From assembly GCF_025717605.1 (NCBI RefSeq), contig NZ_JAJIRQ010000008.1, positions 1 through 64,000 on the forward strand: a stretch of 64,000 bases of DNA, in the 5' to 3' direction. Made by a program: the position numbers and the translations under genes. The notes beneath the pieces were generated by a model. The model searched no databases and was not told the DNA's origin. It worked only from the letters and a program-made list of their open reading frames with translations. Below, piece after piece: positions 164 to 13,464 of the stretch (positions are counted from its first letter, which is position 1; every line of letters begins with the position of its first letter). The DNA comes from Paucibacter sp. TC2R-5. GTDB lineage: Bacteria > Pseudomonadota > Gammaproteobacteria > Burkholderiales > Burkholderiaceae_C.

Positions 164-1018
164 TCAGTTAAAGAAGTCAGTGATGACCGTCCTGATGTCG
201 CGCCGCTTGATCAGTTCATAGCCCTGCAAGGCATATGTTTCGCGTTTGGTGCCATCTTCGACCAGTGCCAAGCAGGCAGCCTGGATGTCGGCTGTCTTAA
301 CGAAATTCAGCCCACCGCCGCGCAGATCGGCCTCAATCTCCAAGTCATCGCTGAAATCACAGACGACCGCCTTGCGGTTAGCCATCAAATAGGACACTCG
401 AACTATCTCGAAGATGTTGCCACGAGAGAAATTGACCACCACCTTGGACCGAGCGATGAACTCGTCGCGTTGCTTGCCCCAAACATTGCACAGCGTCATC
501 ACCGACATGCCGGTCAGGTCCGGCCGAAGGCCGGCAATATTGTGCAAGGAGTCAAAGCGATCAGGCGTGATATTGCCGTAGTACAGCACATCAATGTCTT
601 GTTCCAGGCCGCGCGGGATCTTTTCCAAGTTGGGCGCGTAGGCAGTCTTGGCGTAATAGGCCGGGAACTTGGGGCTCAGCAAATTCCAGGTGTCCACATT
701 GGCCTGGCTGTAGTCCCAAATTTGGAACTTGTTTGCCACATGGTGAGCGCCCGTGCCGAACAAGGACTTGCCGGCGTAGCGCTCCATATTGAAAAAGATC
801 GTGTTGGCCGGGAAAGTGTCGATCAATCCGAGCTGCATGGGGATCTGAAACCCGAAGACGATATTCAGCGCCTCGGGGTCGAAATGATTGACACGTCTAT
901 CGACACTATGTCCTAGAGCCGCAAAGCCCCAGTGGTAAGACTCCACCACCTCGTTATAGGCCTCCAAAATACCGATTTTGGGGTAGAACGGGTTGTACTG
1001 AACCAAGCATATTTTCAT
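164..1018 (-). CDS. Putative glycosyltransferase, CgeB/GT1-like
   Basis: 284 aa, last gene of the minus-strand glycan cluster. The C-terminal half resembles the CgeB-like glycosyltransferase group: a strand-turn 'DVLYYGNITPDRFDSL', then 'RSKVVVNFSRGNIFEIVRVS' and a following 'ANRKAVVCD', the usual nucleotide-sugar binding side of a GT-B fold. The first domain of the large gene at 52583-54679 has the same layout, so the two are probably distant relatives. Start chosen at the ATG at 1018 (MKICLVQYN); a longer open frame to 1381 would overlap the upstream SGNH gene by more than 300 nt and reads like shadow sequence. No signal peptide is seen, so a cytoplasmic role is likely. Sugar donor and acceptor cannot be told from sequence. 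Confidence 0.6.
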   Translation of the reverse strand: MKICLVQYNPFYPKIGILEAYNEVVESYHWGFAALGHSVDRRVNHFDPEALNIVFGFQIPMQLGLIDTFPANTIFFNMERYAGKSLFGTGAHHVANKFQIWDYSQANVDTWNLLSPKFPAYYAKTAYAPNLEKIPRGLEQDIDVLYYGNITPDRFDSLHNIAGLRPDLTGMSVMTLCNVWGKQRDEFIARSKVVVNFSRGNIFEIVRVSYLMANRKAVVCDFSDDLEIEADLRGGGLNFVKTADIQAACLALVEDGTKRETYALQGYELIKRRDIRTVITDFFN

Positions 1019-1047
1019 GAACTCATGCCCTTGGGAAATGCGATATT

Positions 1048-1989
1048 TCAGACTGGAGCCAGATCTTGCGGATGAGCTCGAATCAGATAGCGCTCCGCGC
1101 TTTGCACCAACACCAATTGGGCGTTGACGCTTGCACAATATTGGAAATCGATCATCGTGTTCCAGACGAAATGCACTTGGCCGAAGAAGGCGGAGAGCAG
1201 ATCGGAGAAGCCCACGTCGAATGAATAGCTGTCGCCGAAGATCACTACCGAGGTCTGATAGGGCGCGCGCTCGTTTTGCAGCACATAGTGATTGCCGACA
1301 TGGGCGCCTGTCGTAGCCATCAGGCGGTTGTCGTAAACCACACGGGCTCTGCGGGCGATGCTGATGACGCTCTCGAAACAAAGCTCGTCGGTGTATTTCA
1401 GCAGCAGATCATGGCGCCACCAACTGCGCGCCAGTGGCACCCGCTCGAAATCGAAGCTCAGCTCCGGGCAAACCGACTGCATCAGCTCACAAAAACCGAA
1501 CCAAGCGCCGCTGGCACACCAATGGCTATTGCCCCGCCAGCACAACTCAGCGCGCCAGGATTCGGCCCGCAAGCGCTCGACCGGATAGACCAAGCCTGAC
1601 GGTATACGTTGAAGCAGTTGCAAGGCCGGTCGCGCTTGCGTTGCAGTCTGGCTACCTTGTGGCCAGCGTGCGTGCGGAATGATGGATTGCTTCTCTGGCA
1701 CTACCAGATGGGCGAAGCGCGCACCTATGGCCGCACTATGGGCCTGGCGGCGCGCAAAGGTCTGCTGCCAAGCCTGCAGAGTGGGCTCGTCCAGTGTCAC
1801 TTGACCCAAATACTGTTGCTCCCAGGCGTTATTGCCATTGGCGATGTACTGCCAACCATCCAGCCCGGCGATCGCTACTTGGTCGACAGACAGCTTTTCG
1901 AATGGCTGATCGTAGTGGCGGGCAAACAAAGCGCGATTGGTATGGGCCAGCTCGCGCTCGACAGCCAAGAACTCGCTCAGTCGGCTCAT
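1048..1989 (-). CDS. SGNH hydrolase-like protein, AlgX/AlgJ type
   Basis: 313 aa. Two motifs place it in the AlgX/AlgJ/DHHW branch of SGNH hydrolase-like proteins, which O-acetylate or bind polysaccharides: 'GDSYS' at about residues 252-256 (nucleophile Ser254) and 'NSHWCASGAW' at about 154-163, matching the family's D-x-H-W block with the catalytic His. Here the Asp is replaced by Asn154, so activity may be altered. No clear signal peptide or membrane segment is visible, which is odd for a family usually in the periplasm, and no MBOAT partner lies next to it. It sits 3 nt downstream of the GT2 gene and 29 nt before the final glycosyltransferase, so it is co-transcribed with glycan genes. Confidence 0.6.
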   Translation of the reverse strand: MSRLSEFLAVERELAHTNRALFARHYDQPFEKLSVDQVAIAGLDGWQYIANGNNAWEQQYLGQVTLDEPTLQAWQQTFARRQAHSAAIGARFAHLVVPEKQSIIPHARWPQGSQTATQARPALQLLQRIPSGLVYPVERLRAESWRAELCWRGNSHWCASGAWFGFCELMQSVCPELSFDFERVPLARSWWRHDLLLKYTDELCFESVISIARRARVVYDNRLMATTGAHVGNHYVLQNERAPYQTSVVIFGDSYSFDVGFSDLLSAFFGQVHFVWNTMIDFQYCASVNAQLVLVQSAERYLIRAHPQDLAPV

Positions 1990-1992
1990 GAT

Positions 1993-2997
1993 TCAGGCCG
2001 CTGCCAAGACCGGCGTGGTGGCCAGCTCCTGGCGACTGCTGGCGCCGCTATAGACATGCCAAAGTGCGAGAAACGCCTCTTCGGCGCCCTCCTCGGCCGC
2101 CGCCAGGCCGGGCATCACCGAGGTCAATTCGGCCATATCTTGCTCATGACCATAGCGCAGCTTGATCAAGGGGCACAAACCGGCCAGATTGGTCGCCGCC
2201 TGCGTCGCTGTCAGCTTACCCAAGCGGCGTCCGCCAAGCGTCAGGGCAATATAGGCCAGATGCGCCAACTTCATCGGCCGGCCCATGGCATTGGCCGAAT
2301 GCTGCTCGGCACTGGTGCGAAAGTAGCCCAGATGCTCGTTGATATAGCCCAGCGATCCGCTCAAGCTGGCCTTCAAGAATGCGCCCAGATCTTCCAGTCC
2401 CGTGAAGCAAATGCCGCCCATGCTGGGGTCATCAAGCTGTACGGCCATCTCAGCGGAGAAGGTGGCATTGGAGAACTCGCCCAGCCAATTGCTGCTGACC
2501 GCTGCAGTCTGGGCAAACAAGAGATCGCAACCCAGGACCAGCATGCGCTGAGGATGTTGAGCAATGGCGGGAGGCACCGGCAAATCCCGCATTGGCTGCC
2601 CGGACTCCAGGGCTGTCCAGCGCCGGCTCACCACACAGTTCAAGGCGGCTTGGCGATGGGCGTCGAGATGGCGCTCGTAGAAGCTCGGATAGGGAATGTC
2701 ATCGTCCAGTAGAAGATGAAACAACTCGCTGGGGCCGCCGGCTTGTTCGCGGTAAAGCCTCAGCAGATGCCGAAAGTTGTTGTAGGCGCCGTTGCGCGGG
2801 CCGGCCACAACCAAAACCTGCAAGTCGGCCACCAAGCTCTTGAGTGGTTCGGCATTCAGCATTGCGACAAAGGTCTGATCAGGGCTGTCGTCCGAGATGA
2901 TCACCCGGGCTGGCTTGACCGTCTGGTGGCGCAACGCTGTCAGCAGTTCGATCAAGTACTTGGGCTTGTAGGCCGGAACCAGGGTGGTGATTTGCAT
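1993..2997 (-). CDS. Glycosyltransferase family 2 protein
   Basis: 334 aa. The N-terminus is a GT-A fold of family 2: 'MQITTLVPAYKPKYL' (nucleotide-binding strand), 'VIISDDSPD' at about 37-45, and 'LLLDDDIPYP' at about 98-107, the metal-binding DxD region. The rest is less conserved, with 'GGICFTGLEDLGAF' resembling the acceptor side. The ATG at 2997 is preferred because the family begins right at the Val-Pro-x-Tyr strand; an open frame runs upstream to 3267 but overlaps the aminotransferase gene. It is likely to transfer the modified sugar made by the neighbouring ketoisomerase/aminotransferase pair, but donor and acceptor are inferred from context only. Confidence 0.8.
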   Translation of the reverse strand: MQITTLVPAYKPKYLIELLTALRHQTVKPARVIISDDSPDQTFVAMLNAEPLKSLVADLQVLVVAGPRNGAYNNFRHLLRLYREQAGGPSELFHLLLDDDIPYPSFYERHLDAHRQAALNCVVSRRWTALESGQPMRDLPVPPAIAQHPQRMLVLGCDLLFAQTAAVSSNWLGEFSNATFSAEMAVQLDDPSMGGICFTGLEDLGAFLKASLSGSLGYINEHLGYFRTSAEQHSANAMGRPMKLAHLAYIALTLGGRRLGKLTATQAATNLAGLCPLIKLRYGHEQDMAELTSVMPGLAAAEEGAEEAFLALWHVYSGASSRQELATTPVLAAA

Positions 2998-3014
2998 GAT
3001 GGATGAGTGACTGT

Positions 3015-4124
3015 TTAGCGGAGGGCCGCCTTGACCACCGAAGCAACCCGGTTGACATCCTCGACTGTCATATAGGGGGCGATGGGCAGGCTCAGCAGCT
3101 CGCTTTGCAGGCGTTCTGCGATCGGAAGGTTTGGCCAGCTTTGCTGCGCAAAGGCCTGCTGGCGGTGGCACGCGATCGGGTAATGCACCATATGCCCGAT
3201 ACCAGCTTCGCTCAGCGCCGCTTGTAAATGCTCGCGTCGGTCGGTCCGCAGCACCATCAGATGCCATGCTGACTCTGCCCCCTCAATCTGCTTTGGCAAC
3301 TGCAGCGGAGCGTCTTGCAAGGCCGCCATATAGGCTGCGGCGAGGCGGCGGCGGCTGGCATTCTCGGCGTCCAACTCGGGCAGCTTGACGCGCAGCACGG
3401 CAGCCTGAAGTTCATCAAGGCGCGAATTGACACCCGCCAACTCATGGTGGTACTTGATGCTGGAGCCGTAGTTGCGCAGCATGCGCAGCCGCGCAGCGAG
3501 CGCATCGTCATTGGTTGTGATGGCACCGCCATCGCCAAGTGCGCCAAGGTTCTTACCCGGGTAAAAGCTGAAACCGGCGGCATCACCAAGGCCACCTGTG
3601 CGCCGTCCCAGGTAACGCGCCCCATGCGCCTGGGCAGCGTCCTCGATTACCTTCAGGCCATGGCGCTGAGCGATTTCCATGATCGGAGCCATGTCAGCGG
3701 GCTGGCCGTACAGATGCACCGGCATGATGGCTCGAGTAGCCGGGGTAATGGCTGCCTCAATGCAGGCAGGATCAAGGTTATGCGTAGCAATATCGGGTTC
3801 TACCGGCACTGGCTTGGCACCTGCCTGACTCACCGCCAGCCAAGTGGCGATAAAGGTATTGGATGGCACGATGACTTCGTCGCCGGTACCGATCCCATAA
3901 GCCCGTAAAACCAGGTGTAAGGCATCCAAGCCATCGGCAACACCAATGCAATGCTTGACGCCACAGAATTCTGCAAACTCATGCTCAAAGCTGGCAACCT
4001 CTTCTCCCAAGATGTACCAACCCGAGTCCAGCACGCGGGCAATCGCCGCGCGTATGCCCGCATCGTGGGCCGCGTTAACCCGCTTGAGATCAAGAAAGGG
4101 GATCGTTTGATTCTGCAAGCTCAT
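3015..4124 (-). CDS. DegT/DnrJ/EryC1 sugar aminotransferase (FdtB/QdtB-like)
   Basis: 369 aa, full length for PLP-dependent sugar aminotransferases. Hallmarks are '[15 protein letters not shown]' (about 61-75), '[10 protein letters not shown]' (89-98), 'EDAAQAHGA' (161-169) and the PLP-lysine motif '[15 protein letters not shown]' with Lys191. In the family, members next to a FdtA/QdtA ketoisomerase aminate dTDP-3-keto-6-deoxyhexose at C3, giving dTDP-3-amino-3,6-dideoxy-galactose or -glucose. The start overlaps the ketoisomerase stop by 4 nt (ATGA), so the two are translationally coupled. Which epimer (Fuc3N or Qui3N) is made depends on the partner and cannot be read here. Confidence 0.88.
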
Positions 4125-4531: not shown

Positions 4532-4591
4532 GGACACACCCTTTAGCTTATGGCTGCCATTGTGCATCCAGCCTTTGTGCCAAAGGCGGCG

Positions 4592-4612: not shown

Positions 4613-4615
4613 AGA

Positions 4616-5956
4616 TCAGCGCCGCATCTTTTTGAAGCGAGCCGAATAGATTTCTTGATCCAGTAACTCTACTTTCGCAGGCACTTTGAAGGCCGCCAGC
4701 TTTGCCAGGCAGGCCTTACGCACGCGAAGCCGCAGTTCTGACAGAGGTTCGGCATCGTGCAACGCTATCTTGGCAACGACGATTTGGCCAAGCAGGGCAT
4801 GCTTCTCCCCAACCACCACCACATCGGCGACATTGGGCAGCGCCAAGATGACGTCTTCAACCTCGGCTGGATAGACTTTTTGCCCACCCACATTGATCAG
4901 ATCGGTAACCCGACCGAGGATACGGAAGTAGTCGCCATCGACTTCGACCCGGTCCTGTGTATTGAACCAACCCTCAGCGTCAAAACCCGAGGCTGCGTTC
5001 AAGTAACCGAGCATTCGATAGTCCGAGCGTATCCACAGAATGCCATCGCGGACCTCGGTCTCAAAGCCAGAGCCGCCAATGCGAACCCAGAGCGAGCCGT
5101 CGGGACGCGACTGCGAACGCAACACACCGACTTCGGATAGTCCATAGGTTTGTTGGAGTTCAACCGCTGGAAATTTGGCTCGGATGCGGTCAAGTGTCGC
5201 CTGCGGCATGGTCTCGGTGCCGTAGGTGATGCGCTTGAGTGAACTCAAGTCATAACGTTGCGCCAGATCTGTCGCGGCCAGCAGGGTCAAAAACGAAGGT
5301 GTCGTGGGCAACAACTCGACGCGGTGATTCTGGATCGCTTCGCAAATCGTCGGGATGCTGCGATTCTCAGCCGTGACCACCGTACCAAGACTGGCTGTGA
5401 TGGCAAGAATCGTGTTGATGCCGCCGAAATGATCGAGCATCAAGAAGGGTATCGCCACGACTGGGGTGCGGGCAACGCGAAACTTGTCCATCACCCGCTC
5501 AAAATCATGCAGCATGCCCTTGGGCTTGCCGGTGGATCCGGACGAAAACAGCACCAAGCCAGCGCGAACGCTGGCACGCAGTTCGTCCAACAAAGCGTTG
5601 CTGACTGGCACCGAACGTGGTCTCAAAGCCCAGCTCAAACCGTCGGGCGAGAATTCGATCAGATGGTCACAGCCTGAGATGGCCAGTGCCTCGGACTCCT
5701 CGATGACGGAGCCGCGCGTCATGGGTACCACCATGGTCTTCAGCGAGGCCAAGGCCAAAATAATACTGAACACCTCAGGGGCATAGTCGGCGAGCACCAC
5801 AACGGTCTGGCCAGCACTCACCCCCTGTCGGCTCAGCGTTTCAGTGAAACGCCGAATATCAGCCGAAACCTGGCCATAGGTGCAAACTTGGCCTTTGTGA
5901 ACAAAGGCAGCACGCTGCGGATCAGCGGATGCAAAGCGCTCAAGCAGCCACTGCAT
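4616..5956 (-). CDS. AMP-forming acyl-CoA/acyl-ACP synthetase (ANL superfamily)
   Basis: 446 aa, a little short for the family. The core motif A3 'LFSSGSTGKPKGM' is at about 136-148, A5 'QQTYGLSEVG' and A7/A8 'GYLN...GWFNTQDRVE...GRVTDLINVGGQKVYPAEVE' follow, and the protein ends in 'ARFKKMRR', where a terminal Lys takes the place of the A10 lysine although the usual Gly is absent. It should adenylate a carboxylic acid and load it on CoA or on one of the two cluster carrier proteins. It begins 2 nt after the small carrier-protein gene, which makes that ACP (5959-6195) the likely partner. Substrate is unknown. Confidence 0.82.
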   Translation of the reverse strand: MQWLLERFASADPQRAAFVHKGQVCTYGQVSADIRRFTETLSRQGVSAGQTVVVLADYAPEVFSIILALASLKTMVVPMTRGSVIEESEALAISGCDHLIEFSPDGLSWALRPRSVPVSNALLDELRASVRAGLVLFSSGSTGKPKGMLHDFERVMDKFRVARTPVVAIPFLMLDHFGGINTILAITASLGTVVTAENRSIPTICEAIQNHRVELLPTTPSFLTLLAATDLAQRYDLSSLKRITYGTETMPQATLDRIRAKFPAVELQQTYGLSEVGVLRSQSRPDGSLWVRIGGSGFETEVRDGILWIRSDYRMLGYLNAASGFDAEGWFNTQDRVEVDGDYFRILGRVTDLINVGGQKVYPAEVEDVILALPNVADVVVVGEKHALLGQIVVAKIALHDAEPLSELRLRVRKACLAKLAAFKVPAKVELLDQEIYSARFKKMRR

Positions 5957-5958
5957 GG

Positions 5959-6195
5959 TCAGGCCGCGAGTTGCTCACCCAGCACCAGGGCGATCAGCTT
6001 GTATGAGGTGGCATTGGCGGCGTCCTCGTCTGGAATCGACACGCCGAAACTCTCTTCCAAAGCCAGGATCAAATTCATCTGCCGCAGCGAATCCCAGCCG
6101 GGTACGTTGTCCATGCTGGAATCGACATCCAGCGTACCGGCCTCGACCTCCAGGACCGAGGCCATGACTTTCTTCAACAAAACTTGATCAAGCAT
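5959..6195 (-). CDS. Acyl carrier protein (cluster ACP 2)
   Basis: 78 aa with the four-helix carrier layout and the phosphopantetheine site 'GWDSLRQMNL' (Ser36). ATG 6195 is used because it gives a normal ACP length; the longer open frame upstream runs through the FkbH gene. The start overlaps the FkbH stop by 8 nt, so the two are coupled. In polyketide clusters FkbH-like proteins load a glyceryl unit from 1,3-bisphosphoglycerate on a stand-alone ACP of this size, which is the most direct role here; loading by the adjacent acyl ligase is the alternative. Confidence 0.88.
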   Translation of the reverse strand: MLDQVLLKKVMASVLEVEAGTLDVDSSMDNVPGWDSLRQMNLILALEESFGVSIPDEDAANATSYKLIALVLGEQLAA

Positions 6196-7975
6196 TGCGT
6201 AACTCCACCCATTCACTGTCGGCCAGCTGCACTGCGGCCAAATTTGCTTCGTAGGAGCGACTTCCGTCACTCGCCTGCGCCAGCCTGGGCAATCCCAAGC
6301 GGTCATAGAAGTCTGCCACCTGTGCGTTCTTGGCGGTCGGATGATAAGCGGCTCGCAGCCAGCGTTTTCCCCGCGCAAGCGCGTCGGCGCAGACTGCGCG
6401 CCAGACCGCGAACTCTATGCCCCGCCCTATCACCCGGCAGCTCATCAGAAAGCTGTGAACGACAACTGCGTCGCCTTCGTCCTCGGTAATCAGTACGCCG
6501 GTCAAACCGTGTTCGGCCAATCGGTCGCTGACCGAGAACGAATAGACCAAGGCATCGCTGCGCGCCATCAGCGCTTGCACCTCACCGGCCGCCAAGCGTC
6601 TCGTGCTCAAGTTGAACTGATTGGACTTCGCCATCAGTTCGGTGATGCGTGCCACTTGCGCTGTAGCGTCGCGCTGCAGTGTCACAGCCAATTGCAGGGA
6701 TTGAAGGTAGTCTTGCTGGCTGGCAAAGCCTGCTTGCAACTCACTTGCCTGAGCTAGTGCTCGGTATTGCTGAGTCTTGTTGCTGCTTGAACCTTTTGAA
6801 GAACCGACGCCGAACAGCGGTGCGATCTCATCGCGCACCAGCGCTGGATAGTCTTGCAAGGCCTTGGGCACTTGGAATACCCGCACCTGCGGCAACTGCT
6901 CGCGCACAGCCTCGATCTCGAAGGCCGAATCGTCAACAAAGACAAAACTGTCTAGCCCCAAATTGAGCTGCTCGGACAAGGCGCGCAGATTGCTGGGCTT
7001 GTCCAGCCAGTTGACCTGTTTGCAAAGGATCTGCGCGTCACGCAGCACCATGTCAGGGTGCGTGAGCAAGACCTCGTCGACATCCGCTGGATTGTTCTTG
7101 CTGTTCAGACACAACAAGACGCCCTGCCGCTCCAGCGCCTTGAACTGCTGCTGAACAGTCCAAAATACATTGCCGGGGAAGCTGTGGCGGTCCAGCTTCA
7201 GGCCACCAATCCCGTCCTCGCCCACGATCCCGCCCCACAAAGTGTTGTCACAGTCCAGCACCAGCACCTTGTAAAAATGGCTGCCGAAGCCGCGCGTGGC
7301 CCGGCCGACCTGCTCTGCTAAGGCGTCGACAAAACCAGCCGTATAGGGTGCCTTGGCGCGGAAGTAAAAGCGAGCATCGAAGGCATGTCGGGCGCCGAAC
7401 TGGCTCAGCAAGCCGGCCATGTCTACCAGCTTGACCTGAACCTGGTCCGCCGCCAGCGCGCCAAGGCCCTGGTTGAAGGAATCAAGTGCCCGCTGTTGCG
7501 CGCTGTCGGCTGGCACCAGCACGTTCAACAAATGTGCACTGCACAGCAGGACCTGACCTATGCCTTGCGCTGCATCCAAGGCCAACGCCAGACGATGGAG
7601 GTAGTCGGCCTGTGCGGACGCCCAAGCGCCGTCCTCCAACGCGCCAATCTGACTTTCCCAAGAAGGCTGCAGGTTGTCGAAAAAGGGAAGAATCAGCAGC
7701 AGATCAACGCCGGCATGGGCCTGCACATCGCCGAGTAAATCGTCATACGTGCCCTTGGCGACTTGCAGGCGTACACCGGCCAGATAGGCATGGCGGCGCA
7801 GATAAGTGGCCAGCAGGTCAACTGTGATGTTGGCCGCCAAACCCAGCTTCAAACTGCGGAATTCAGTGGAACTGTGATCCAGGTGTTTGAGCGCCTCCAT
7901 AACCTCGAACTGGGCAGCGTCGGCACGGGCCAAGACCGCCAAAGCGGCCTGCGTCGCCTCGTCAGCAATCACCAT
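6188..7975 (-). CDS. FkbH-like HAD-superfamily protein (glyceryl-ACP synthesis type)
   Basis: 595 aa. The central HAD domain carries motif I 'VLDCDNTLWGGIVGEDG' with Asp241 and Asp243, followed by 'LCLNSKNNPADVDEVL' and 'FVFVDDSAFEIEAVRE'; the N-terminal 200 residues look SGNH-like and the C-terminal 180 ('KSNQFNLSTRRL', 'SCRVIGRGIEFAVW') match the GNAT-like tail of FkbH proteins. Characterised relatives dephosphorylate 1,3-bisphosphoglycerate and transfer the glyceryl group to an ACP. Start at ATG 7975 overlaps the previous stop by 7 nt. In this setting it may make a glyceryl or hydroxy-acyl group that ends on an amino sugar; that use is inferred. Confidence 0.85.
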   Translation of the reverse strand: MVIADEATQAALAVLARADAAQFEVMEALKHLDHSSTEFRSLKLGLAANITVDLLATYLRRHAYLAGVRLQVAKGTYDDLLGDVQAHAGVDLLLILPFFDNLQPSWESQIGALEDGAWASAQADYLHRLALALDAAQGIGQVLLCSAHLLNVLVPADSAQQRALDSFNQGLGALAADQVQVKLVDMAGLLSQFGARHAFDARFYFRAKAPYTAGFVDALAEQVGRATRGFGSHFYKVLVLDCDNTLWGGIVGEDGIGGLKLDRHSFPGNVFWTVQQQFKALERQGVLLCLNSKNNPADVDEVLLTHPDMVLRDAQILCKQVNWLDKPSNLRALSEQLNLGLDSFVFVDDSAFEIEAVREQLPQVRVFQVPKALQDYPALVRDEIAPLFGVGSSKGSSSNKTQQYRALAQASELQAGFASQQDYLQSLQLAVTLQRDATAQVARITELMAKSNQFNLSTRRLAAGEVQALMARSDALVYSFSVSDRLAEHGLTGVLITEDEGDAVVVHSFLMSCRVIGRGIEFAVWRAVCADALARGKRWLRAAYHPTAKNAQVADFYDRLGLPRLAQASDGSRSYEANLAAVQLADSEWVELRNA

Positions 7976-9165
7976 GACATTGAGCTCCCGCCATTGACCC
8001 TGAGGTTCTGGCCGGTCACATAGGCGGCCTGCTCGGAGGCCAGATAGGCAACAGCGCCTGCGGTGTCCTCGGGCTCAGCCAAGCGACGCAGCGGGGTCTG
8101 CCGTGCGACCATCAATTGATGCTTTTCCGAAACGGCGGCGATGAAGGCCGTATTGGTCATCCCCGGCGACACCAGATTGACAGTAATGCCTTGCGGACCC
8201 AACTCGGCCGCCAGATAGCGGGTTAGCGTCGACAGCGCGCCTTTGGCGATCGCGTAGGCGGTCCAACCAGCCACCGGCACCCCGTCCCAGGATTGAGAGC
8301 CGATCGAAATCACCCGCCCACTGCCTGCCAACACCATGGCCGGCTTGCAGGCCTGGATCATCAGCAAGGCGCTCTTGAGCTGAACGTCTAGTTGCTGCTG
8401 TACTTCGTCCCAGGCCAACTCCTCGATTGAGCGCGCGACGATGCGTGGCGAGGCAGCATTGACAAGCACGGTGATGCCGCCGAAATGCTCGACTGCCGCA
8501 TTTGCCAGCTTGGCCGCACCGTCGGGCGTTGACACATCGGCTTGCACGGCTAGCGCGGTGGCACCGCCCTCCTTCAACTGGGCCACCAACTTGAGTGCCT
8601 TGTCCTGACTTGCTTTGTAATTGACGACCACCGCGAAGCCATCGGCCGCCAGCTTGGCGCAGATCGCCCGGCCTATGCCACCGGCCCCGCCTGTAACGAT
8701 GGCGACCTTCAAGCGAACGCCGGGTGCGGCCGGCTTAGGCTTGGGCGGCTCCAGCAACTTGACCTTGCCGCCGCCGCTAAGCACGACTTGGCCGTGCTGG
8801 TTGCAGATGCGGGTGTCAAGCTCCAGCAGGCGCTCGCGCGGATGCTTTTTGAGCACAGTGCAGGTCACGGTCAAGGTGTCACCCAGACGTACCGGCAGAT
8901 TGAACTCCATGGATTGCGACACCCACAGCGCGCCGGGGCCAGGCAGCTTGGTGCCGATGACGGTCGAGATAAAGGACGCGCCGAGCATGCCGTGGACGAC
9001 GATCTCCTTGAACGAGGTCTCACTGGCGTAATCGGGGTCCACATGCAGGGGGTTGTCGTCACCGGTCAACTCGACAAAGCGACGGATATCGGCTTCGCCA
9101 ATCTGTTTGACCAGGGATTGCTGATCTCCCTCTTTGACCGCGTCAAAATCGGCAAAAACATTCAT
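7969..9165 (-). CDS. Fused MaoC-type (R)-hydratase and SDR 3-ketoacyl reductase
   Basis: 398 aa with two domains. Residues about 10-130 are a MaoC/hot-dog hydratase with the hydratase-2 motif 'LTGDDNPLHVDPDYA' (catalytic Asp and His). Residues about 150-398 are a FabG-like short-chain dehydrogenase: 'VTGGAGGIGRAI' cofactor loop, 'LVNAAS', and the catalytic 'YAIAK' Tyr-Lys pair. The enzyme could reduce 3-ketoacyl-ACP to the (R)-3-hydroxy form and interconvert it with the enoyl form. ATG 9165 overlaps the KAS III stop by 4 nt (ATGA), linking it to the condensing enzyme. The longer frame to 9186 lacks a better start. Confidence 0.85.
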   Translation of the reverse strand: MNVFADFDAVKEGDQQSLVKQIGEADIRRFVELTGDDNPLHVDPDYASETSFKEIVVHGMLGASFISTVIGTKLPGPGALWVSQSMEFNLPVRLGDTLTVTCTVLKKHPRERLLELDTRICNQHGQVVLSGGGKVKLLEPPKPKPAAPGVRLKVAIVTGGAGGIGRAICAKLAADGFAVVVNYKASQDKALKLVAQLKEGGATALAVQADVSTPDGAAKLANAAVEHFGGITVLVNAASPRIVARSIEELAWDEVQQQLDVQLKSALLMIQACKPAMVLAGSGRVISIGSQSWDGVPVAGWTAYAIAKGALSTLTRYLAAELGPQGITVNLVSPGMTNTAFIAAVSEKHQLMVARQTPLRRLAEPEDTAGAVAYLASEQAAYVTGQNLRVNGGSSMSW

Positions 9166-10184
9166 TGCGGAACTCCCAGGGTCCAACGCCAGACGCTGGC
9201 CGCGAAATTGAAACCGGCACCCACACCGGCCAGGGCGACTAGATCGCCGTTTTTGATGTGCCCGCCGCGTACCGCCTCGCTCAGGGCAATGGCCAAAGAT
9301 GCCGAGCCACTATTGCCGATCTGCGCCACATTGGTGTAAGTCTTGTCCAGCCCCAGGCCCATCTTGCGAACCAGATACTCGATTAAGCGCAGATTGGCCT
9401 GATGGAAAATCATGAAATCCAAGGTCTTTACTTCCACCTCAGCCTTGGCGCAGGCGCGTCGAATGGTCGGCGGCAAATGCGTGATGGCCTGCTTCCAAGT
9501 GGCGATGCCGTTCATCTCCATCAGGTCGACGGTCGCATCAAACGGCCGGCCGTTATTGGCGAATGAGGCGCCGCCGCCGCGCAGACGAACCGCCTCGTAA
9601 TTGGACGGGTCGGTATGGAAAGCGGAGGACTGTACGCCCTCTCCCGGCTTGGCCGGGCCTAGCACAGCGGCGCCGGCGCCGTCACTCAGATAGATGGCGG
9701 TGTTAGCGTCCTTACGGTCGATATAGCGGCTGCACATCTCTACACCAATGACCAGAGCGTAGCCAACGCTGGTGTCGACCCGCATACGGTCGCTTGCGCT
9801 CGTCAGGCCAGCCACAAAGCCGGAACAATTGGCCTGTAAATCAAAGGTCTGGGCGTTGGAAGCGACTAACTGCTGCGCGACCTTGACCGATAGCGGCGGA
9901 AACTGATAGTCGCCTGAAAAAGTGCAGCAGACAATCAGACCCAACTGGTCCGCTGCGATACCGGCCATTGCCAGCGCCTGCCTTGCGGCCGCGACCGAAA
10001 AGCCCCAGGCCGTGTCGTCGACGGCGGCTATGTAGCGTCGCTCAATGCCGGTTTTCTCGATGATCCATTCCGGCGTCACGTCCAGATGCCGGCAAAGGGT
10101 CTCGTTGTCCTCAAACTGGGCAGGCAGATGATGGCCGACGCCGATGATGGAAACCGCAGGAAGGTGAGGATTCAAGACTGTCAT
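9162..10184 (-). CDS. 3-oxoacyl-ACP synthase III-like condensing enzyme (FabH family)
   Basis: 340 aa from ATG 10184. All three catalytic residues of KAS III are present: Cys120 in 'QANCSGF', His261 in 'IFHQANLRL' and Asn291 in 'IGNSGSASLA'. The N-terminus 'VSIIGVGHHLPAQFEDNETL' and 'WIIEKTGIERRY' are typical. It should start a short acyl chain by condensing acetyl-CoA (or a similar primer) with malonyl-ACP. A TTG at 10199 gives five more residues and would overlap the preceding stop by 4 nt; neither start has a clear ribosome site. Location in a sugar cluster rather than with fab genes argues for a dedicated acyl decoration. Confidence 0.85.
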   Translation of the reverse strand: MTVLNPHLPAVSIIGVGHHLPAQFEDNETLCRHLDVTPEWIIEKTGIERRYIAAVDDTAWGFSVAAARQALAMAGIAADQLGLIVCCTFSGDYQFPPLSVKVAQQLVASNAQTFDLQANCSGFVAGLTSASDRMRVDTSVGYALVIGVEMCSRYIDRKDANTAIYLSDGAGAAVLGPAKPGEGVQSSAFHTDPSNYEAVRLRGGGASFANNGRPFDATVDLMEMNGIATWKQAITHLPPTIRRACAKAEVEVKTLDFMIFHQANLRLIEYLVRKMGLGLDKTYTNVAQIGNSGSASLAIALSEAVRGGHIKNGDLVALAGVGAGFNFAASVWRWTLGVPQ

Positions 10185-10195
10185 TGGGGGCAAGG

Positions 10196-10888
10196 TCAAG
10201 CAGGATGGGGGGCGGACATAAAGGCTCGCAGCTCTTCGTTGTGCGCGTGGATTTGATGGATGGTGGCCGTTCCGCCATGGCCCGGCAGCACCAAGACATC
10301 GGGCGCGATCCAGGCAAATAGACCGCGCAACGAGCGACGCAATTGATCATGGTCCTCGCCCGGCAATTTGGACAGAGCGGTACGGCGGGCGTAAAGCGAG
10401 TCACCGGAAAACATCAGGCCATCGACCAGAATGGCTGCGCTGCCCGGCGTGTGGCCGGGCAGCGGGTGAAAACTGAATTGCCGTCCGATCAATTCCAGCG
10501 CGGCGTCGCCATCGTCAATCAGGCTGAACTCGGGCAGAGCGATGCGATTCTTAAGCTTGAAGGCGGCCATCATGAAGTTGGACAGCTTGGCCTGCTTAAG
10601 ATCGGCTGCGCTCAGGTAGACCGGCAGGCCGTAGGTTTGTTGCAGCCAGGCGGTCCCGCCAACATGGTCGAAATGCCCGTGGGTGCAAAGCACCGCCACT
10701 GGCCGCCACCCGCTTGTGACGATTGCAGCCTCGATGCAGGCGCGGTCCAGGCCAGGATCGATGACGACGCAGGCGCCGCCCTGCCCCGCATCTGACGGGC
10801 CGGCGAGCAAGTAGGTGTTGGAATGCAAATCTGTATTGGTGACGCGCAGCAGCGTGCCGCCCAACAGAGATTCGAACATGTGTTTCAC
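10196..10888 (-). CDS. MBL-fold metallo-hydrolase, probable thioesterase/hydrolase
   Basis: 230 aa, a single metallo-beta-lactamase domain of the glyoxalase II-like group. The metal site 'THGHFDHVGG' gives His70, His72, Asp74 and His75; later ligands are in 'PLPGHTPGS' and 'FSGDSLY' and 'LPGHGG'. GTG 10888 is taken as start because a GGAG site lies 9 nt before it; the ATG at 10879 is the alternative. Sitting between two enzymes of acyl-ACP chemistry, it may cleave an acyl thioester, but the family is broad and the substrate is not shown by sequence. Confidence 0.78.
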   Translation of the reverse strand: MKHMFESLLGGTLLRVTNTDLHSNTYLLAGPSDAGQGGACVVIDPGLDRACIEAAIVTSGWRPVAVLCTHGHFDHVGGTAWLQQTYGLPVYLSAADLKQAKLSNFMMAAFKLKNRIALPEFSLIDDGDAALELIGRQFSFHPLPGHTPGSAAILVDGLMFSGDSLYARRTALSKLPGEDHDQLRRSLRGLFAWIAPDVLVLPGHGGTATIHQIHAHNEELRAFMSAPHPA

Positions 10889-10889
10889 T

Positions 10890-11606
10890 TCAGTTAACTC
10901 CGCCGAGATAGACCGTTTGGGCGGTCACATAGGCACTGCGTTCGGACGCGAAGAAGTCCACCACATTGAAGATATCGTCCGGCTGCGCATACCGCGGCAG
11001 TGGCAGACCTGCCACCACGGCATCGATCTTGTCCTTGGGCAGTTGGGCCAACATATCGGTCTCGATTGCCGTGATGGCCAGGGTGTTGCAGGTCACGTTG
11101 AAGGCGGCAAACTCGCGCGCCATCACGTTCGCCAGGGTAGAAATCGCGGCCTTGCTGGCGGCGTAAACCGAGTCACCCATCGGTTCCAAGCTGCTGGCCA
11201 TAGAGCCGATATTGATGATGCGGCCCCATTTGGGTTTGCGCATCAGCTTGGCCGCCTCACGCGAGACCAAGAAGGTGCCGAGGATATTGACCTCCAACAT
11301 GGTCTTGGCTGCCGCGGCCGGCATGATCATCGCGTATTGAGAAACCAACTGCGCGGCATTGTTGATGACGATATCGATTTGGCCGAACTCCTGGCGGATG
11401 CGCGCGAAACCCTGTGCCACCGAGGCCGGGTCGGCGATGTCCACTGCCATCGAGGTATAGCCGGGCAACTCGTCCTCATCTTCGTGACGGTTGAAGCCAA
11501 TCACCCGCGCTTCGCCGGCCAAAAAATGCTCGGTCAACAACCGTCCGACGCCGCGCCGCGCTCCGGTGATCAACACCACCTTGCCGACATAGCTGGTAAC
11601 GCTCAT
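10890..11606 (-). CDS. SDR-family oxidoreductase (FabG-like)
   Basis: 238 aa, a classical short-chain dehydrogenase. The cofactor loop 'ITGARRGVG' is near residue 14-21, 'VINNAAQ' follows, and the catalytic Ser and 'YAASK' Tyr/Lys are in 'NIGSMASSLEPMGDSVYAASK'. It ends 'YVTAQTVYLGGVN', the normal FabG-type tail. It lies 5 nt after the ACP gene and 1 nt before the MBL gene. As the MaoC fusion also carries an SDR domain, the cluster has two reductases, possibly for different acyl or sugar intermediates. Confidence 0.83.
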   Translation of the reverse strand: MSVTSYVGKVVLITGARRGVGRLLTEHFLAGEARVIGFNRHEDEDELPGYTSMAVDIADPASVAQGFARIRQEFGQIDIVINNAAQLVSQYAMIMPAAAAKTMLEVNILGTFLVSREAAKLMRKPKWGRIINIGSMASSLEPMGDSVYAASKAAISTLANVMAREFAAFNVTCNTLAITAIETDMLAQLPKDKIDAVVAGLPLPRYAQPDDIFNVVDFFASERSAYVTAQTVYLGGVN

Positions 11607-11611
11607 CCTAC

Positions 11612-11914
11612 TCAGGCCAGCAGTTCGAGAATATAGGCCTGTAGCGACGTCACATCGCTGAACGGCACTGGGTCACGGCTCATCGCCTTGTCGTCGGTCA
11701 GGCTGATGGTGCGTCCAAATTTGTCGCTCACCAGAGTTTCCAGATCAACGATGACCGAGACCAAGGAGAGCGAGTCCAACTCGGACCCCTCACCGAAGAG
11801 GCTGGTGCTGGTGCCGATCTCGATTTGCTCGTCGGCTGCACGTTCCTCGTTCAGGGCACGCAGAGCTTGGTAAATCAACTCCAGAACCGACACGGCGTTG
11901 TCATTCGTTGTCAT
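11612..11914 (-). CDS. Acyl carrier protein (cluster ACP 1)
   Basis: 100 aa, longer than a housekeeping ACP. The attachment site is 'SELDSLSLVSVIVD' with Ser48, in a typical carrier-protein helix. ATG 11914 is preferred since a TTGGAG site lies 8 nt before it; an ATG 6 nt earlier and a TTG at 11932 are also in frame. It differs clearly from the 78-aa ACP at 5959-6195. Placed before the SDR, MBL and KAS III genes, it most likely carries the chain those enzymes build. Confidence 0.85.
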   Translation of the reverse strand: MTTNDNAVSVLELIYQALRALNEERAADEQIEIGTSTSLFGEGSELDSLSLVSVIVDLETLVSDKFGRTISLTDDKAMSRDPVPFSDVTSLQAYILELLA

Positions 11915-11944
11915 CTGCATCACTCCAATCAAGTATTCAAGAAA

Positions 11945-12535
11945 TTAGCTTTGGCTGCTGGCTCTGGGTCGACCGGCTTTGATCAAGGCATTCATGCGCG
12001 GCAGCGCGGCTGCTTGGTACTCAGCTTCCAGCATGCCGAAGCAGACAGCGTCCTGAAAATGCCCATTGAGGAAGTAATGGCGGCGCAAGCGCCCTTCTTC
12101 CTTCATGCCCAAGAACTTCTGCCATTTGATCATCAGCAGGTTGTCGGACGAGATCGTACCGAAGACGCGTTCCAGCTTGAGTTGCTCAAAGACCAACTGA
12201 TAGACCAGCTTCATCGCCTCGACCGCAGCCGGGATACCGCGCACCGCTTCCTGCTCGCCGATCAAGAAGCGACCGGGCTCGGCATGGCGATGTTGTTCGT
12301 CGATGCCGGTGATGGCGACCATACCGACCGGCGCTCCGTCCTTCAGACAGATCAGAAAGTTGTATTCACTGCTCGGCCGTGCGGCTATCCACGCCGCTTG
12401 CTGTGCCACCGTCGTCGCACCGCGGTTGAGGTTGGCGGCGCGATCGCTTTGGCGCCAGCTGAAAGTCAGCGCCGCATGCTCAGGCGCCAAGGGAATCAGG
12501 TCGACGAACTCGCCGTGCAAGGTCAGGGCGGGCAT
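11945..12535 (-). CDS. GNAT-family N-acyltransferase (RimJ/PseH-like)
   Basis: 196 aa from ATG 12535. It matches the GNAT_3/PseH layout: 'LIPLAPEHAALTFSWRQ' near the N-terminus, 'GMVAITGIDEQHRHAEPGRF' (beta4), the acyl-CoA loop region 'AVRGIPAAVEAMKLV' and 'ERVFGTISSDNLLMIKWQKF'. PseH and relatives acetylate amino sugars, so this enzyme is a good candidate to place the acyl group on the 3-amino sugar made by the FdtA/FdtB-like pair; no hexapeptide-repeat FdtC-type acyltransferase is present in the window. The start lies 5 nt after the methyltransferase stop; the upstream extension in the open frame overlaps that gene. Confidence 0.75.
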   Translation of the reverse strand: MPALTLHGEFVDLIPLAPEHAALTFSWRQSDRAANLNRGATTVAQQAAWIAARPSSEYNFLICLKDGAPVGMVAITGIDEQHRHAEPGRFLIGEQEAVRGIPAAVEAMKLVYQLVFEQLKLERVFGTISSDNLLMIKWQKFLGMKEEGRLRRHYFLNGHFQDAVCFGMLEAEYQAAALPRMNALIKAGRPRASSQS

Positions 12536-12540
12536 CTCGT

Positions 12541-13464
12541 TCAGGCCTTGGGTGTCAGCACCATCGCCAGCGCGCTCGGTACGGGTTGGCCGGGGCTGGT
12601 CGGCGCGTAGGCATTGGCGAAAAAGCAATTCTCCATGTGCAGGCCGGCCGCCTCGACTTGGTCCCAGACCTCCTGCGGCTGACGGTAGAGATAGATGTGA
12701 TCGGCATGCGCAGCATTCAGAGCCGCCGTAACGAATAACTTGCCGTCATTGCTGCACAGACCCTTCAAGCCCTTCAACAAGGCGACCGGGTCCTCCAGAT
12801 GCTCCAGCACCTCCACGCAAACCACTGCCGCGAAGCGTTGCTCGCCGGGCTGTTCGATGATGTTTTGCTGACGGGTCTGGTAGCGTGAGGCGAAGCCGAA
12901 GCTCGCGACATGACTGGCTGTGAACTGCAGCGACAGCGGACTGATATCAAGACCTACGCCGCGCAACCCGACGTCGTTCTGCAAAGCCAGACGAGAGTAG
13001 ATGCCTGTGCCGACGCCCACTTCAGCAAACTCAAGCACCTGCCGAGCCCGCATCCAGGGCAGGAAGTAGCTCTTGAAGTACTCAATCTGCTGATAGTGAT
13101 GAGGCCACAGATAGTGCGAGAGCAAGAGTCCGGGCAGGTACTGGCGGCGCATGTAGTCGTCGTTGTAATAGACCTCGGCGGCCGCCTCTGCGTAGGTCTT
13201 GGCAGGGTAGCTGAGCTCTTTCTCGAAGCGCTTTTGGCGCCGCATCGAGTCCATCACAAAGGCAGCATAGCCCTTCACCGCATCCAGCAGCGCCGTATCG
13301 TCCGTGTAGAACTGGCTCAGCATGGCCGAAAAATCGGTTTCCCAGGCTGGGCCGAATTCGGCCGCCGCGCGGTGCACGCTCTCGCGTGCAAAACGGGCCG
13401 ACCCATCCATCAGAGTGAGCAATTTGGCGATCGGCGCCTGAGCAGGGTTGGCGAATGCGTTCAT
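12541..13464 (-). CDS. Class I SAM-dependent methyltransferase
   Basis: 307 aa. A Rossmann methyltransferase domain starts after a roughly 140-residue N-terminal extension: motif I 'FAEVGVGTGIYS' (about 146-157), 'GVGLDISPLSL' (motif II) and 'VCVEVLEHLEDP' (motif IV). The N-terminal part, rich in aromatic residues around 'YYNDDYMRRQYLPG', is not recognised. ATG 13464 has GAGGGA 10 nt upstream. It is the first gene after the TolC gene (128-nt gap), so either it opens the glycan operon or is read through from the secretion genes. Target may be a sugar or the acyl chain; unproven. Confidence 0.78.
   Translation of the reverse strand: MNAFANPAQAPIAKLLTLMDGSARFARESVHRAAAEFGPAWETDFSAMLSQFYTDDTALLDAVKGYAAFVMDSMRRQKRFEKELSYPAKTYAEAAAEVYYNDDYMRRQYLPGLLLSHYLWPHHYQQIEYFKSYFLPWMRARQVLEFAEVGVGTGIYSRLALQNDVGLRGVGLDISPLSLQFTASHVASFGFASRYQTRQQNIIEQPGEQRFAAVVCVEVLEHLEDPVALLKGLKGLCSNDGKLFVTAALNAAHADHIYLYRQPQEVWDQVEAAGLHMENCFFANAYAPTSPGQPVPSALAMVLTPKA

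What the first reader, a model, noticed from the sequence alone, without database searches (positions are those of the whole stretch)
164..13464. Candidate pathway for an unusual acyl-decorated 3-amino-3,6-dideoxyhexose
The cluster holds two ACPs, KAS III, MaoC-SDR, SDR, MBL hydrolase, FkbH, acyl ligase, GNAT, methyltransferase, FdtA/FdtB-like enzymes and glycosyltransferases. Flagellin glycosylation islands of pseudomonads combine sugar genes with ACP and KAS III genes to make hydroxy-acyl amino sugars, but this set has FkbH plus a C3 amination route. The product could be a 3-hydroxybutyryl-, glyceryl- or methylated acyl-amino sugar not yet described.
Basis: partly seen in the sequence, partly recalled or inferred. 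Interest (0 to 1): 0.78.

Follow-up and report, generated by a model that had tools for sequence, protein, structure and literature searches.

The report
Acyl-sugar island for secreted giant protein
A bacterium carries one gene block that appears to build an unusual acyl-tagged sugar, attach sugars to a giant repetitive protein and export that protein, and related bacteria carry a simpler acetyl version of the sugar genes in the same place, which makes the role of the parts testable.

Summary
In detail: 15 collinear genes at 164-13464 include two ACPs, KAS III, MaoC-SDR, SDR, MBL hydrolase, FkbH, acyl ligase, GNAT, methyltransferase, FdtA/FdtB and glycosyltransferases. The block is larger than reported: the same strand continues with a type I secretion system and a GT41 (O-GlcNAc-transferase-like) gene to 20610. 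In relatives the island ends next to a giant ALTTAQ-repeat gene; here the contig breaks there. All 57 of 299 family genomes with this GT41 clade also have ALTTAQ repeats. Key comparison: six relatives with the GT41-T1SS-ALTTAQ chassis carry more distant FdtA/FdtB genes plus a QdtC/FdtC-type N-acetyltransferase and no acyl module; window-type islands lack that enzyme and have GNAT plus the acyl-ACP module. The module keeps its order in 41 of 80 loci from about seven phyla, 30 of them with FdtA and FdtB. Best reading: an N-acylated (not N-acetylated) 3-amino-3,6-dideoxyhexose decorating a type I-secreted giant protein. The acyl structure is inferred (FkbH-loaded three-carbon unit, probably extended by KAS III), not shown. 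FkbH in a glycosylation locus is not itself new (Campylobacter cj1302). New variant of a known kind.

The parts
98..122 (.). terminator-like stem-loop read on both strands, just past the last gene
   Evidence: among 19 terminator-like sites; shuffles give 18.1, so only its position speaks for it
164..1018 (-). GTa, putative glycosyltransferase, conserved gene of window-type islands
   Evidence: no Pfam/NCBIfam match; orthologues 77-92% in five relatives' islands; 25% match to an L141 protein whose own best Pfam hit is a methyltransferase (1.2e-6) with Glyco_trans_1_2 only at 0.018
1048..1989 (-). unassigned protein, perhaps AlgJ/AlgX-like SGNH acyltransferase
   Evidence: no Pfam match; my visual reading of a GDSYS motif only; orthologues 67-88%
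1993..2997 (-). GT2 family glycosyltransferase
   Evidence: PF00535 1.2e-5; start codon chosen by eye
3015..4124 (-). FdtB/QdtB: dTDP-3-keto-6-deoxyhexose 3-aminotransferase
   Evidence: PF01041 4.7e-125; best solved relatives QdtB 3frk 404.3 bits and 2oga 404.2 bits
4121..4567 (-). FdtA/QdtA: dTDP-4-keto-6-deoxyglucose 3,4-ketoisomerase
   Evidence: PF05523 1.3e-57; nearest 5tpu, titled WlaRB TDP-quinovose 3,4-ketoisomerase
4616..5956 (-). AMP-forming acyl ligase
   Evidence: PF00501 2.6e-32 and C-terminal domain; present in 41 of 41 full-module loci
5959..6195 (-). ACP1
   Evidence: PF00550 1e-7; Ser kept in 69 of 69; start chosen by eye
6188..7975 (-). FkbH-like enzyme (glyceryl loading of ACP1, inferred)
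   Evidence: TIGR01686 2e-72; DxD 72 of 72, Cys between 68 of 72
7969..9165 (-). MaoC dehydratase/hydratase fused to SDR reductase
   Evidence: PF01575 4.2e-19, PF13561 2.1e-52; D/H 76 of 77, Lys 77 of 77
9162..10184 (-). KAS III (FabH-like) condensing enzyme
   Evidence: NF006829 1e-84, over its cut-off; Cys-His-Asn 55 of 55
10196..10888 (-). MBL-fold hydrolase, resembling hydroxyacylglutathione hydrolase
   Evidence: PF00753 5.4e-24; TIGR03413 59.7 bits, below its cut-off; metal ligands 51 of 51
10890..11606 (-). SDR, FabG-like ketoreductase
   Evidence: PF00106 9e-40; the residue counts mix in MaoC-SDR domains where no separate SDR exists and are not used
11612..11914 (-). ACP2
   Evidence: no Pfam hit; Ser 45 of 45
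11945..12535 (-). GNAT, proposed sugar N-acyltransferase
   Evidence: PF13302 2.2e-12; weak PseH 33.4 bits, below its cut-off
12541..13464 (-). SAM methyltransferase
   Evidence: PF08242 1.2e-12
13593..14948 (-). TolC-like outer membrane channel
   Evidence: PF02321 1.1e-24
15070..16293 (-). HlyD-type periplasmic adaptor
   Evidence: TIGR01843 9.4e-95, over its cut-off
16297..18702 (-). type I secretion ATPase/permease (LssB type)
   Evidence: TIGR03375 2.5e-237, over its cut-off
18727..20610 (-). TPR + GT41 protein O-glycosyltransferase (proposed)
   Evidence: PF13844 3.2e-78; nearest solved 2jlb XcOGT, then the eukaryotic OGTs

Best explanation
The window holds one variant of a type I-secretion-coupled protein glycosylation island. 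The TPR-GT41 enzyme and the other glycosyltransferases glycosylate a giant Ser/Thr-rich ALTTAQ-repeat protein in the cytoplasm; the ABC-HlyD-TolC channel exports it. FdtA and FdtB make dTDP-3-amino-3,6-dideoxyhexose (Qui3N somewhat favoured over Fuc3N). The GNAT then N-acylates it with a short hydroxyacyl group from ACP2, in place of the N-acetylation expected in sister islands. The acyl group comes from the eight-gene module: FkbH loads a glyceryl unit on ACP1, MaoC-SDR reworks it (dehydration and reduction would give lactyl-ACP1), KAS III extends it with malonyl, SDR reduces the ketone; the ligase and MBL hydrolase activate or edit acyl groups; the methyltransferase may O-methylate. Shown by sequence: enzyme families, intact catalytic residues, conserved order, and the contrast with the N-acetyltransferase islands. 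Inferred: each reaction, the acyl structure, the target protein.
For: (1) Families and catalytic residues. (2) RmlB is in the genome (C2, 500 bits), so the dTDP-4-keto-6-deoxyglucose precursor can be made; RmlA was not searched. (3) Conserved module: full order in 41 of 80 loci; AMP ligase in 41, GNAT in 36, FdtA in 31, FdtB in 33, both in 30 of the 41. (4) Contrast: chassis islands in G036, G258, G206, G007, G111 and G013 have FdtA, FdtB and a left-handed-helix acetyltransferase (the other five copies 80-87% identical to that of G013; solved relatives 7s43 and FdtD 4mzu; PF00132); no module gene matches at E 1e-5 in the stretches fetched from them. The window and the window-type islands have no match to that acetyltransferase. 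(5) GNAT mostly follows the Fdt genes: 49-84% identity in 29 of the 30 full-module loci with both (L091 only a partial hit; L115 31%); in the three with PseB/PseC hits it is 28% (L107), 30% (L136) or absent (L124). (6) Module genes share their distances among 28 loci (Spearman 0.53-0.93, GNAT included, ACP1 not tested), FdtA/FdtB less so (0.24-0.59). (7) GT41 clade and ALTTAQ: 57 of 57 against 81 of 299 overall; an ALTTAQ gene lies within about 2 kb of GTa in G297, G156, G252 and G077 and follows GTa in Roseateles toxinivorans (L072).
Against: The acyl structure is unknown and no experiment exists. The contrast in (4) is not a clean swap: FdtA and FdtB of the six sister islands are only 38-46% and 55-59% identical to the window's, and they lack the window's GTa and 1048-1989 genes, so their sugar may differ in more than the acyl. 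GNAT does not always follow Fdt: L102 has a 59% GNAT with no Fdt hit in 21 kb (L094 and L099 likewise, in shorter loci), and L140 has FdtA with a 26% GNAT. In two window-type islands (L072, L073) the FkbH cysteine is glycine. The genome has other left-handed-helix acetyltransferases elsewhere (46% on C14, 40% on C34), so N-acetylation by an unlinked enzyme is possible. The ALTTAQ link is positional: in this assembly the genes are on contigs C8 and C1, not joined to C44, and in some genomes with the GT41 clade the ALTTAQ hits listed (a capped list) are far away or on other contigs (G133, G236, G154). The Fisher value is not corrected for shared ancestry. In L137 and L141 the same module lies beside flagellin, so the target need not be the ALTTAQ protein everywhere.
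Confidence: 0.57

Rival explanations
1. Simple 3-hydroxybutyryl: KAS III makes acetoacetyl-ACP2, SDR reduces it, GNAT transfers 3-hydroxybutyrate to the 3-amine as in Pseudomonas syringae modified viosamine; FkbH/MaoC-SDR/ACP1 serve a second, separate acyl group.
For: KAS III, ketoreductase, ACP, acyltransferase and methyltransferase match the vioS/vioR/acp/vioB/vioM logic (PMC3927599, sections 2.1 and 2.3 read); KAS III Cys-His-Asn is intact in 55 of 55. The MaoC-SDR, FkbH, ACP1 triad also occurs without a KAS III hit (17 loci), so it can act alone.
Against: Where both are present they sit in one gene order and share evolutionary distances, which suggests one product; a 3-hydroxybutyryl group needs neither FkbH nor MaoC.
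Confidence: 0.25
2. The acyl sugar is for flagellin or for a surface polysaccharide rather than for the ALTTAQ protein; T1SS and GT41 are neighbours with their own job.
For: In L137 (Lysobacteraceae MAG) and L141 (Rubrivivax benzoatilyticus) the full module with FdtA/FdtB lies beside flagellin, in L141 with a GT41 gene. The genome has five flagellin-like hits.
Against: The flagellins are on C23, not on the island's contig; no flippase or polymerase gene was recognised at 164-20610; T1SS, Fdt genes and ALTTAQ stay together in six relatives that lack the acyl module.
Confidence: 0.25
3. FkbH simply supplies glyceryl (or methylated glyceryl) as the N-acyl group, as suggested by dimethylglyceric acid in Campylobacter flagellin.
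For: FkbH-domain gene cj1302 and dimethylglyceric-acid pseudaminic acids in C. jejuni (PMC7099621, passages); a methyltransferase is present here.
Against: Leaves KAS III, MaoC-SDR, SDR and ACP2 unexplained although KAS III, MaoC-SDR and ACP2 keep their catalytic residues.
Confidence: 0.15
4. A tetronate-like product: FkbH, ACP and FabH-like protein act as in the glycerate-utilisation operon and form a ring from glyceryl-ACP and a beta-ketothioester that ends on the sugar amine.
For: The gene set FkbH + ACP + FabH-like + dehydratase resembles that operon (PMC7489565 and PMC4979870, passages).
Against: No polyketide synthase is among the genes at 164-20610; the island has a ketoreductase and a reductase domain that would remove the keto group; the dehydratase here is MaoC-like and fused to an SDR.
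Confidence: 0.08

Closest known systems
dTDP-Qui3NAc / dTDP-Fuc3NAc pathways (QdtA-QdtB-QdtC, FdtA-FdtB-FdtC, FdtD)
   Same: Same ketoisomerase and 3-aminotransferase families.
   Different: No left-handed-helix N-acetyltransferase in the island; GNAT and an acyl-ACP module instead.
Pseudomonas syringae viosamine island and P. aeruginosa PAK flagellin glycosylation island
   Same: KAS III, 3-oxoacyl-ACP reductase, ACP, methyltransferase, aminotransferase, acyltransferase (PMC3927599, sections 2.1 and 2.3 read).
   Different: Those modify a 4-amino sugar on flagellin; here a C3 amination route, FkbH, MaoC-SDR, MBL, a second ACP, GT41 and type I secretion.
Flagellin islands of Enterobacteriaceae and Aeromonas (group II) with acyl genes
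   Same: FdtB, ACP, fatty acid CoA ligase and FabG occur among Enterobacteriaceae islands (PMC4875605, passages); ACP, 3-oxoacyl-ACP reductase and AMP-dependent synthetase in Aeromonas (PMC7874193, passages).
   Different: FkbH and FdtA are not mentioned in either main text (0 occurrences); target is flagellin.
Campylobacter jejuni flagellar glycosylation locus with fkbH-domain gene cj1302
   Same: FkbH in a protein glycosylation locus; dimethylglyceric acid on pseudaminic acid (PMC7099621, passages).
   Different: Pseudaminic acid on flagellin; the gene shown to be needed for the acyl there is cj1295.
Glycerate-utilisation operon of tetronate antibiotics
   Same: FkbH-like protein, free-standing ACP and FabH-like protein (PMC7489565, PMC4979870, passages).
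   Different: No polyketide synthase here; products there are antibiotics.
Bacterial GT41 transferases (XcOGT, 2jlb) and the TPR-glycosyltransferase FlmG of Caulobacter
   Same: TPR plus GT41 domain; FlmG is a TPR protein with a GT-B domain that glycosylates flagellin in the cytoplasm (PMC7591256, passages and start of abstract).
   Different: Here in a type I secretion operon; the paper does not give FlmG's family as GT41 (0 occurrences).

Membership tests
dTDP-3-amino-3,6-dideoxyhexose pathway (Qdt/Fdt) | 3,4-ketoisomerase of the FdtA/QdtA family | tested here: met
   PF05523 1.3e-57; Foldseek best hits QdtA, WlaRB and HCAN_0198 with TM about 0.9
dTDP-3-amino-3,6-dideoxyhexose pathway (Qdt/Fdt) | 3-aminotransferase with PLP lysine | tested here: met
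   best match QdtB; Lys kept in 51 of 52 aligned best hits, some of which are other sugar aminotransferases
dTDP-3-amino-3,6-dideoxyhexose pathway (Qdt/Fdt) | left-handed-helix N-acetyltransferase (QdtC/FdtC) in the cluster | tested here: not met
   no match in the window or in window-type islands; present in six sister islands; more distant copies elsewhere in the genome
dTDP-3-amino-3,6-dideoxyhexose pathway (Qdt/Fdt) | Qui (gluco) or Fuc (galacto) product | tested here: inconclusive
   nearest is the quinovose-type WlaRB; Arg where the Aneurinibacillus enzyme has His in the alignment; that these positions set specificity rests on the 4zu7 title and on recall
Pseudomonas-type flagellin glycosylation island | acyl amino sugar genes next to flagellin genes | tested here: not met
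   flagellin hits on contig C23, island on C44; L137 and L141 alone of 80 loci had a flagellin hit
FkbH glyceryl-ACP synthases | FkbH domain with DxD and adjacent ACP | tested here: met
   TIGR01686 2e-72; DxD 72 of 72; MaoC-SDR>FkbH>ACP1 in 68 of 80 loci
FkbH glyceryl-ACP synthases | transfer of glyceryl from 1,3-bisphosphoglycerate to the ACP | not testable with these tools
   needs an in vitro assay
Decarboxylating KAS III | Cys-His-Asn triad | tested here: met
   55 of 55 aligned
Type I secretion system | ABC exporter, HlyD adaptor and TolC in one operon with a linked substrate | tested here: inconclusive
   three components met; an ALTTAQ gene is linked in relatives but lies beyond the contig end here; secretion untested
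GT41 protein glycosyltransferase | TPR and Glyco_transf_41 domain | tested here: met
   PF13844 3.2e-78 with TPR hits
ALTTAQ repeat proteins (PF20080) | many 38-residue ALTTAQ repeats over the cut-off in the proposed substrate | tested here: met
   36 and 39 stretches in P0001 and P0002 of relatives; matches in the own genome

The most novel reading that the evidence does not exclude
A stand-alone, mobile acyl pathway conserved across about seven phyla turns glycolytic 1,3-bisphosphoglycerate into a polyhydroxy short-chain acyl-ACP (FkbH loading, MaoC-SDR conversion to lactyl-ACP, KAS III extension) as donor for sugar N-acylation. In the Roseateles/Paucibacter group it has been plugged into a previously undescribed system in which a GT41 enzyme coats a giant octapeptide-repeat protein with acyl-sugar glycans before type I secretion, with exchangeable acyl and sugar cassettes, much like serotypes.
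Probability: 0.3. Interest if true: 0.8.

Novelty: new variant of a known kind. Interest (0 to 1): 0.62.

Why it matters
If right, it links three things that my searches did not find described together: an ACP-dependent sugar acylation pathway spread over several phyla, a GT41 clade found with ALTTAQ repeat proteins in 57 of 57 genomes that have it, and type I secretion of those proteins. Relatives offer a near-swap (N-acetyl enzyme against acyl module on a shared GT41-T1SS-ALTTAQ chassis), so comparing strains by mass spectrometry should read out the acyl group. It would also give a function to PF20080 proteins and to a recurrent set of FkbH/KAS III/MaoC-SDR genes.

Tried and rejected
RTX protein as type I substrate: no PF00353 match in the genome, set aside in favour of ALTTAQ. 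Flagellin as target: no linkage in this genome, kept as a rival because of L137 and L141. FkbH as proof of novelty: rejected after PMC7099621. Viral contigs: two pattern stretches, none a relative. Papers: no paper held all terms for ALTTAQ, GT41 + type I secretion + glycosylation, flagellin glycosylation + FkbH + acyl carrier protein or FkbH + lactyl + glyceryl; type I secretion / giant adhesin / O-glycosylation terms gave seven papers, none on point by title and abstract start; some searches were seen as listings, and I opened only papers named in this report. These searches cover only the open library, so 'undescribed' is weak. The bryostatin loading module as a model for FkbH-dehydratase-reductase making D-lactyl-ACP is recalled; the passages seen (PMC4552970, PMC4979870) do not state it. 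Structure of the ALTTAQ C-terminal half: low confidence (mean pLDDT 57.9). On re-checking the sister islands' FdtA/FdtB proved more distant than a clean swap would need; I lowered the main confidence from 0.60 to 0.57 for that. SDR residue counts were dropped because cross-hits are mixed in.

Full report
What is there. The window is bases 1-64000 of contig C44 of a 5.13-Mb genome in 45 contigs. The nearest named relative of the island is Paucibacter sp. B2R-40 (contig length 64174 links G297 to L074), which the search places in the same genus. From 20610 down to 164 the minus strand carries, in order, TPR-GT41, type I secretion ATPase, HlyD, TolC, methyltransferase, GNAT, ACP2, SDR, MBL hydrolase, KAS III, MaoC-SDR, FkbH, ACP1, AMP ligase, FdtA, FdtB, GT2, an unassigned gene and GTa. 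Gaps are short or the genes overlap; the two largest, on either side of TolC, are about 120-130 bases. A terminator-like stem on both strands follows GTa (98-122); such sites are no more common here than in shuffles, so only its position counts.

The other end is missing here but visible in relatives. In G297, G156, G252 and G077 a long convergent stretch of ALTTAQ repeats ends within about 2 kb of GTa, and Roseateles toxinivorans has the same order (L072). Two stretches of 1233 and 1260 residues from G252 and G077 have 36 and 39 PF20080 matches; the second is cut by the end of the stretch fetched. In this genome ALTTAQ genes lie on C8, where one complete gene of 2416 codons is followed by a second that runs, with masked bases in it, to the contig end, and on C1. 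That C8 joins C44 is inferred.

A family-wide link. PF20080 matches 81 of 299 genomes of the family. The GT41 query matches 197 of 299, but its closest clade, which I cut at 500 bits where the best scores drop from 500 to 389, has 57 genomes, and all 57 are among the 81 (Fisher p 2e-42, uncorrected for ancestry; the cut was chosen after seeing the scores). Not all are close: in the capped hit lists G133 has the two about 430 kb apart, and G236 and G154 have them on different contigs. FkbH of the window type (48% identity or more) is in nine of the 299, the window's genome included.

The contrast with acetyl islands. One search fetched the chassis of 11 further genomes, chosen because GT41 and ALTTAQ hits were listed on one contig or (G013, G144) for being of the same genus, and more of G127. 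Six of the 11 (G036, G258, G206, G007, G111, G013) have GT41, ABC, HlyD and TolC, FdtA and FdtB genes, a left-handed-helix acetyltransferase and ALTTAQ. None of the 18 stretches fetched has a match at E 1e-5 to the window's GNAT, ACPs, MBL, KAS III, MaoC-SDR, FkbH or AMP ligase; one weak SDR hit lies in L163. In G013 the FdtA gene is fused to a hexapeptide-repeat domain like FdtD 4mzu, and one search finds acetyltransferase-like sequence beside FdtA in the other five too. Their FdtA and FdtB are only 38-46% and 55-59% identical to the window's, so this is not a one-gene swap. The other five genomes lack both Fdt genes of this type; G228 has CDP-glucose genes, G174 looks similar by eye, and G144, G056 and G076 were not resolved. 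The acetyltransferase's solved relatives are 7s43 and 4mzu. It has no match at E 1e-5 in the window or in the window-type loci, and among the 80 loci only ten match it, none of them with FdtA, FdtB and the full module together. G127 (L046) has the same chassis and an 89% FdtA but a different small FkbH/ACP/GNAT set, and Rubrivivax pictus (G011; L044, L049, L082) has the chassis and part of the module with a PseB-like gene. In the Ramlibacter MAG (L043 = L107) the module stands beside PseB, PseC, PseF and PseG, all over their NCBIfam cut-offs. This pattern is the best evidence that the acyl module feeds the amino group of a sugar.

The module. A scan of genome contigs with an eight-member MaoC-SDR alignment returned the best 80 of 84 loci. 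MaoC-SDR>FkbH>ACP1 is collinear in 68 of 80; ACP2>SDR>MBL>KASIII>MaoC-SDR>FkbH>ACP1 in 41 of 80; some of the rest are cut by contig ends, so these are lower bounds. By record titles the 41 come from Pseudomonadota, Actinomycetota, Gemmatimonadota, Eremiobacterota, a Geobacter MAG, Ignavibacteriae and Bacteroidetes; several are MAGs. FdtA and FdtB are both present in 30 of 41, PseB or PseC hits in three (L107, L124, L136). Seventeen loci have the MaoC-SDR, FkbH, ACP1 triad without a KAS III hit, seven of them with PseB/PseC hits and one with FdtA; at least one of these (L078) starts inside the module. Catalytic residues (sequences aligned over more than 60% of the query): KAS III Cys-His-Asn 55 of 55, MBL ligands 51 of 51, MaoC Asp/His 76 of 77, FkbH DxD 72 of 72, ACP serines 69 of 69 and 45 of 45. 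The cysteine inside the FkbH DxD motif, which I recall as the glyceryl carrier, is kept in 68 of 72 and is glycine in L072, L073 and L100, alanine in L129.

Mechanism. FdtA's nearest solved relative by sequence is WlaRB, a TDP-quinovose 3,4-ketoisomerase (5tpu; 46%), followed by HCAN_0198 and the Aneurinibacillus enzyme; FdtB's is QdtB, nearly tied with 2oga. I therefore lean to Qui3N, without proof. RmlB is elsewhere in the genome. The GNAT is the only N-acyltransferase candidate recognised in the island and mostly follows the Fdt genes (49-84% in 29 of 30 loci with both; exceptions L115, L140, L102, L094 and L099 are told under evidence). [quoted passage not shown] From this I infer FkbH loading of ACP1, MaoC dehydration and SDR reduction to lactyl-ACP1, KAS III extension to an ACP2-bound 3-oxoacyl group, and SDR reduction, giving for instance a 3,4-dihydroxypentanoyl donor. 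The role of the ligase and of the hydroxyacylglutathione-hydrolase-like MBL protein is open. Module genes share their distances (Spearman 0.53-0.93, GNAT included, 28 loci) more than they do with FdtA or FdtB (0.24-0.59), so the module seems to travel as a unit.

Target. GT41 with TPR is the OGT family. The ALTTAQ repeats show a Ser/Thr pair about every eight residues (read by eye); the model has one short helix per eight residues (repeat part pLDDT about 90, three-sequence alignment). The C-terminal part matches the FrpC self-processing module at 44% identity in Foldseek (E 2.8e-6), but that part of the model is of low confidence, so the match rests on sequence. That such domains belong to type I-secreted proteins is recalled. 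Cytoplasmic glycosylation before export is inferred from the operon.

Against known systems. The logic is close to the viosamine island of Pseudomonas syringae (PMC3927599, sections 2.1 and 2.3 read), but the sugar route, the extra enzymes and the probable target differ. FkbH in a glycosylation locus is known from Campylobacter (PMC7099621, passages), and FdtB with acyl genes from Enterobacteriaceae flagellin islands (PMC4875605, passages). I found no paper on ALTTAQ proteins or on this combination in the searches named; the library lacks most subscription journals. I file it as a new variant of a known kind.

Noticed in passing
L073:11159-12484 (ALTTAQ protein), model m241eaedc45ab: ALTTAQ repeats are predicted as a solenoid with one 4-6-residue helix per eight residues; apart from two FrpC entries, the next Foldseek matches are weak ones to mesothelin.
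   Followed up: partly
L040:3400-4148, L041 C-terminal part: C-terminal domain (judged from the L073 model) 44% identical in Foldseek to the FrpC self-processing module; the residue before the first proline of the domain is Thr in both proteins read.
   Followed up: no
L046 (G127): Same chassis with FdtA 89% and FdtB 77%, but a different FkbH (32%), ACP (35%) and GNAT (30%) in opposite orientation: a second acyl cassette.
   Followed up: partly
L135 (uncultured Roseateles MAG): GT41-ABC-HlyD-TolC chassis followed by a third, divergent acyl module (MaoC-SDR 39%, order AMP ligase-ACP2-SDR-MBL-KASIII).
   Followed up: no
L159/L160 (G228), L164/L165 (G174): Chassis with two large ALTTAQ genes where CDP-glucose genes (confirmed for G228; by eye for G174) stand in place of the Fdt genes.
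   Followed up: partly
L141 (Rubrivivax benzoatilyticus JA2) 5379-19735: Full module, FdtA/FdtB, a GT41 gene and a flagellin hit side by side: perhaps the same sugar on flagellin.
   Followed up: partly
L090, L092, L096, L103 (Duganella): Full module with FdtA/FdtB lies between two GT41 genes.
   Followed up: no
L072, L073, L100, L129: The FkbH cysteine between the two Asp is Gly or Ala.
   Followed up: no
L062 (own genome C23:590000-609999): Four flagellin hits with a nearby protein that looks like a GT2/TPR enzyme by eye, so the flagellins may have their own glycosylation genes.
   Followed up: no
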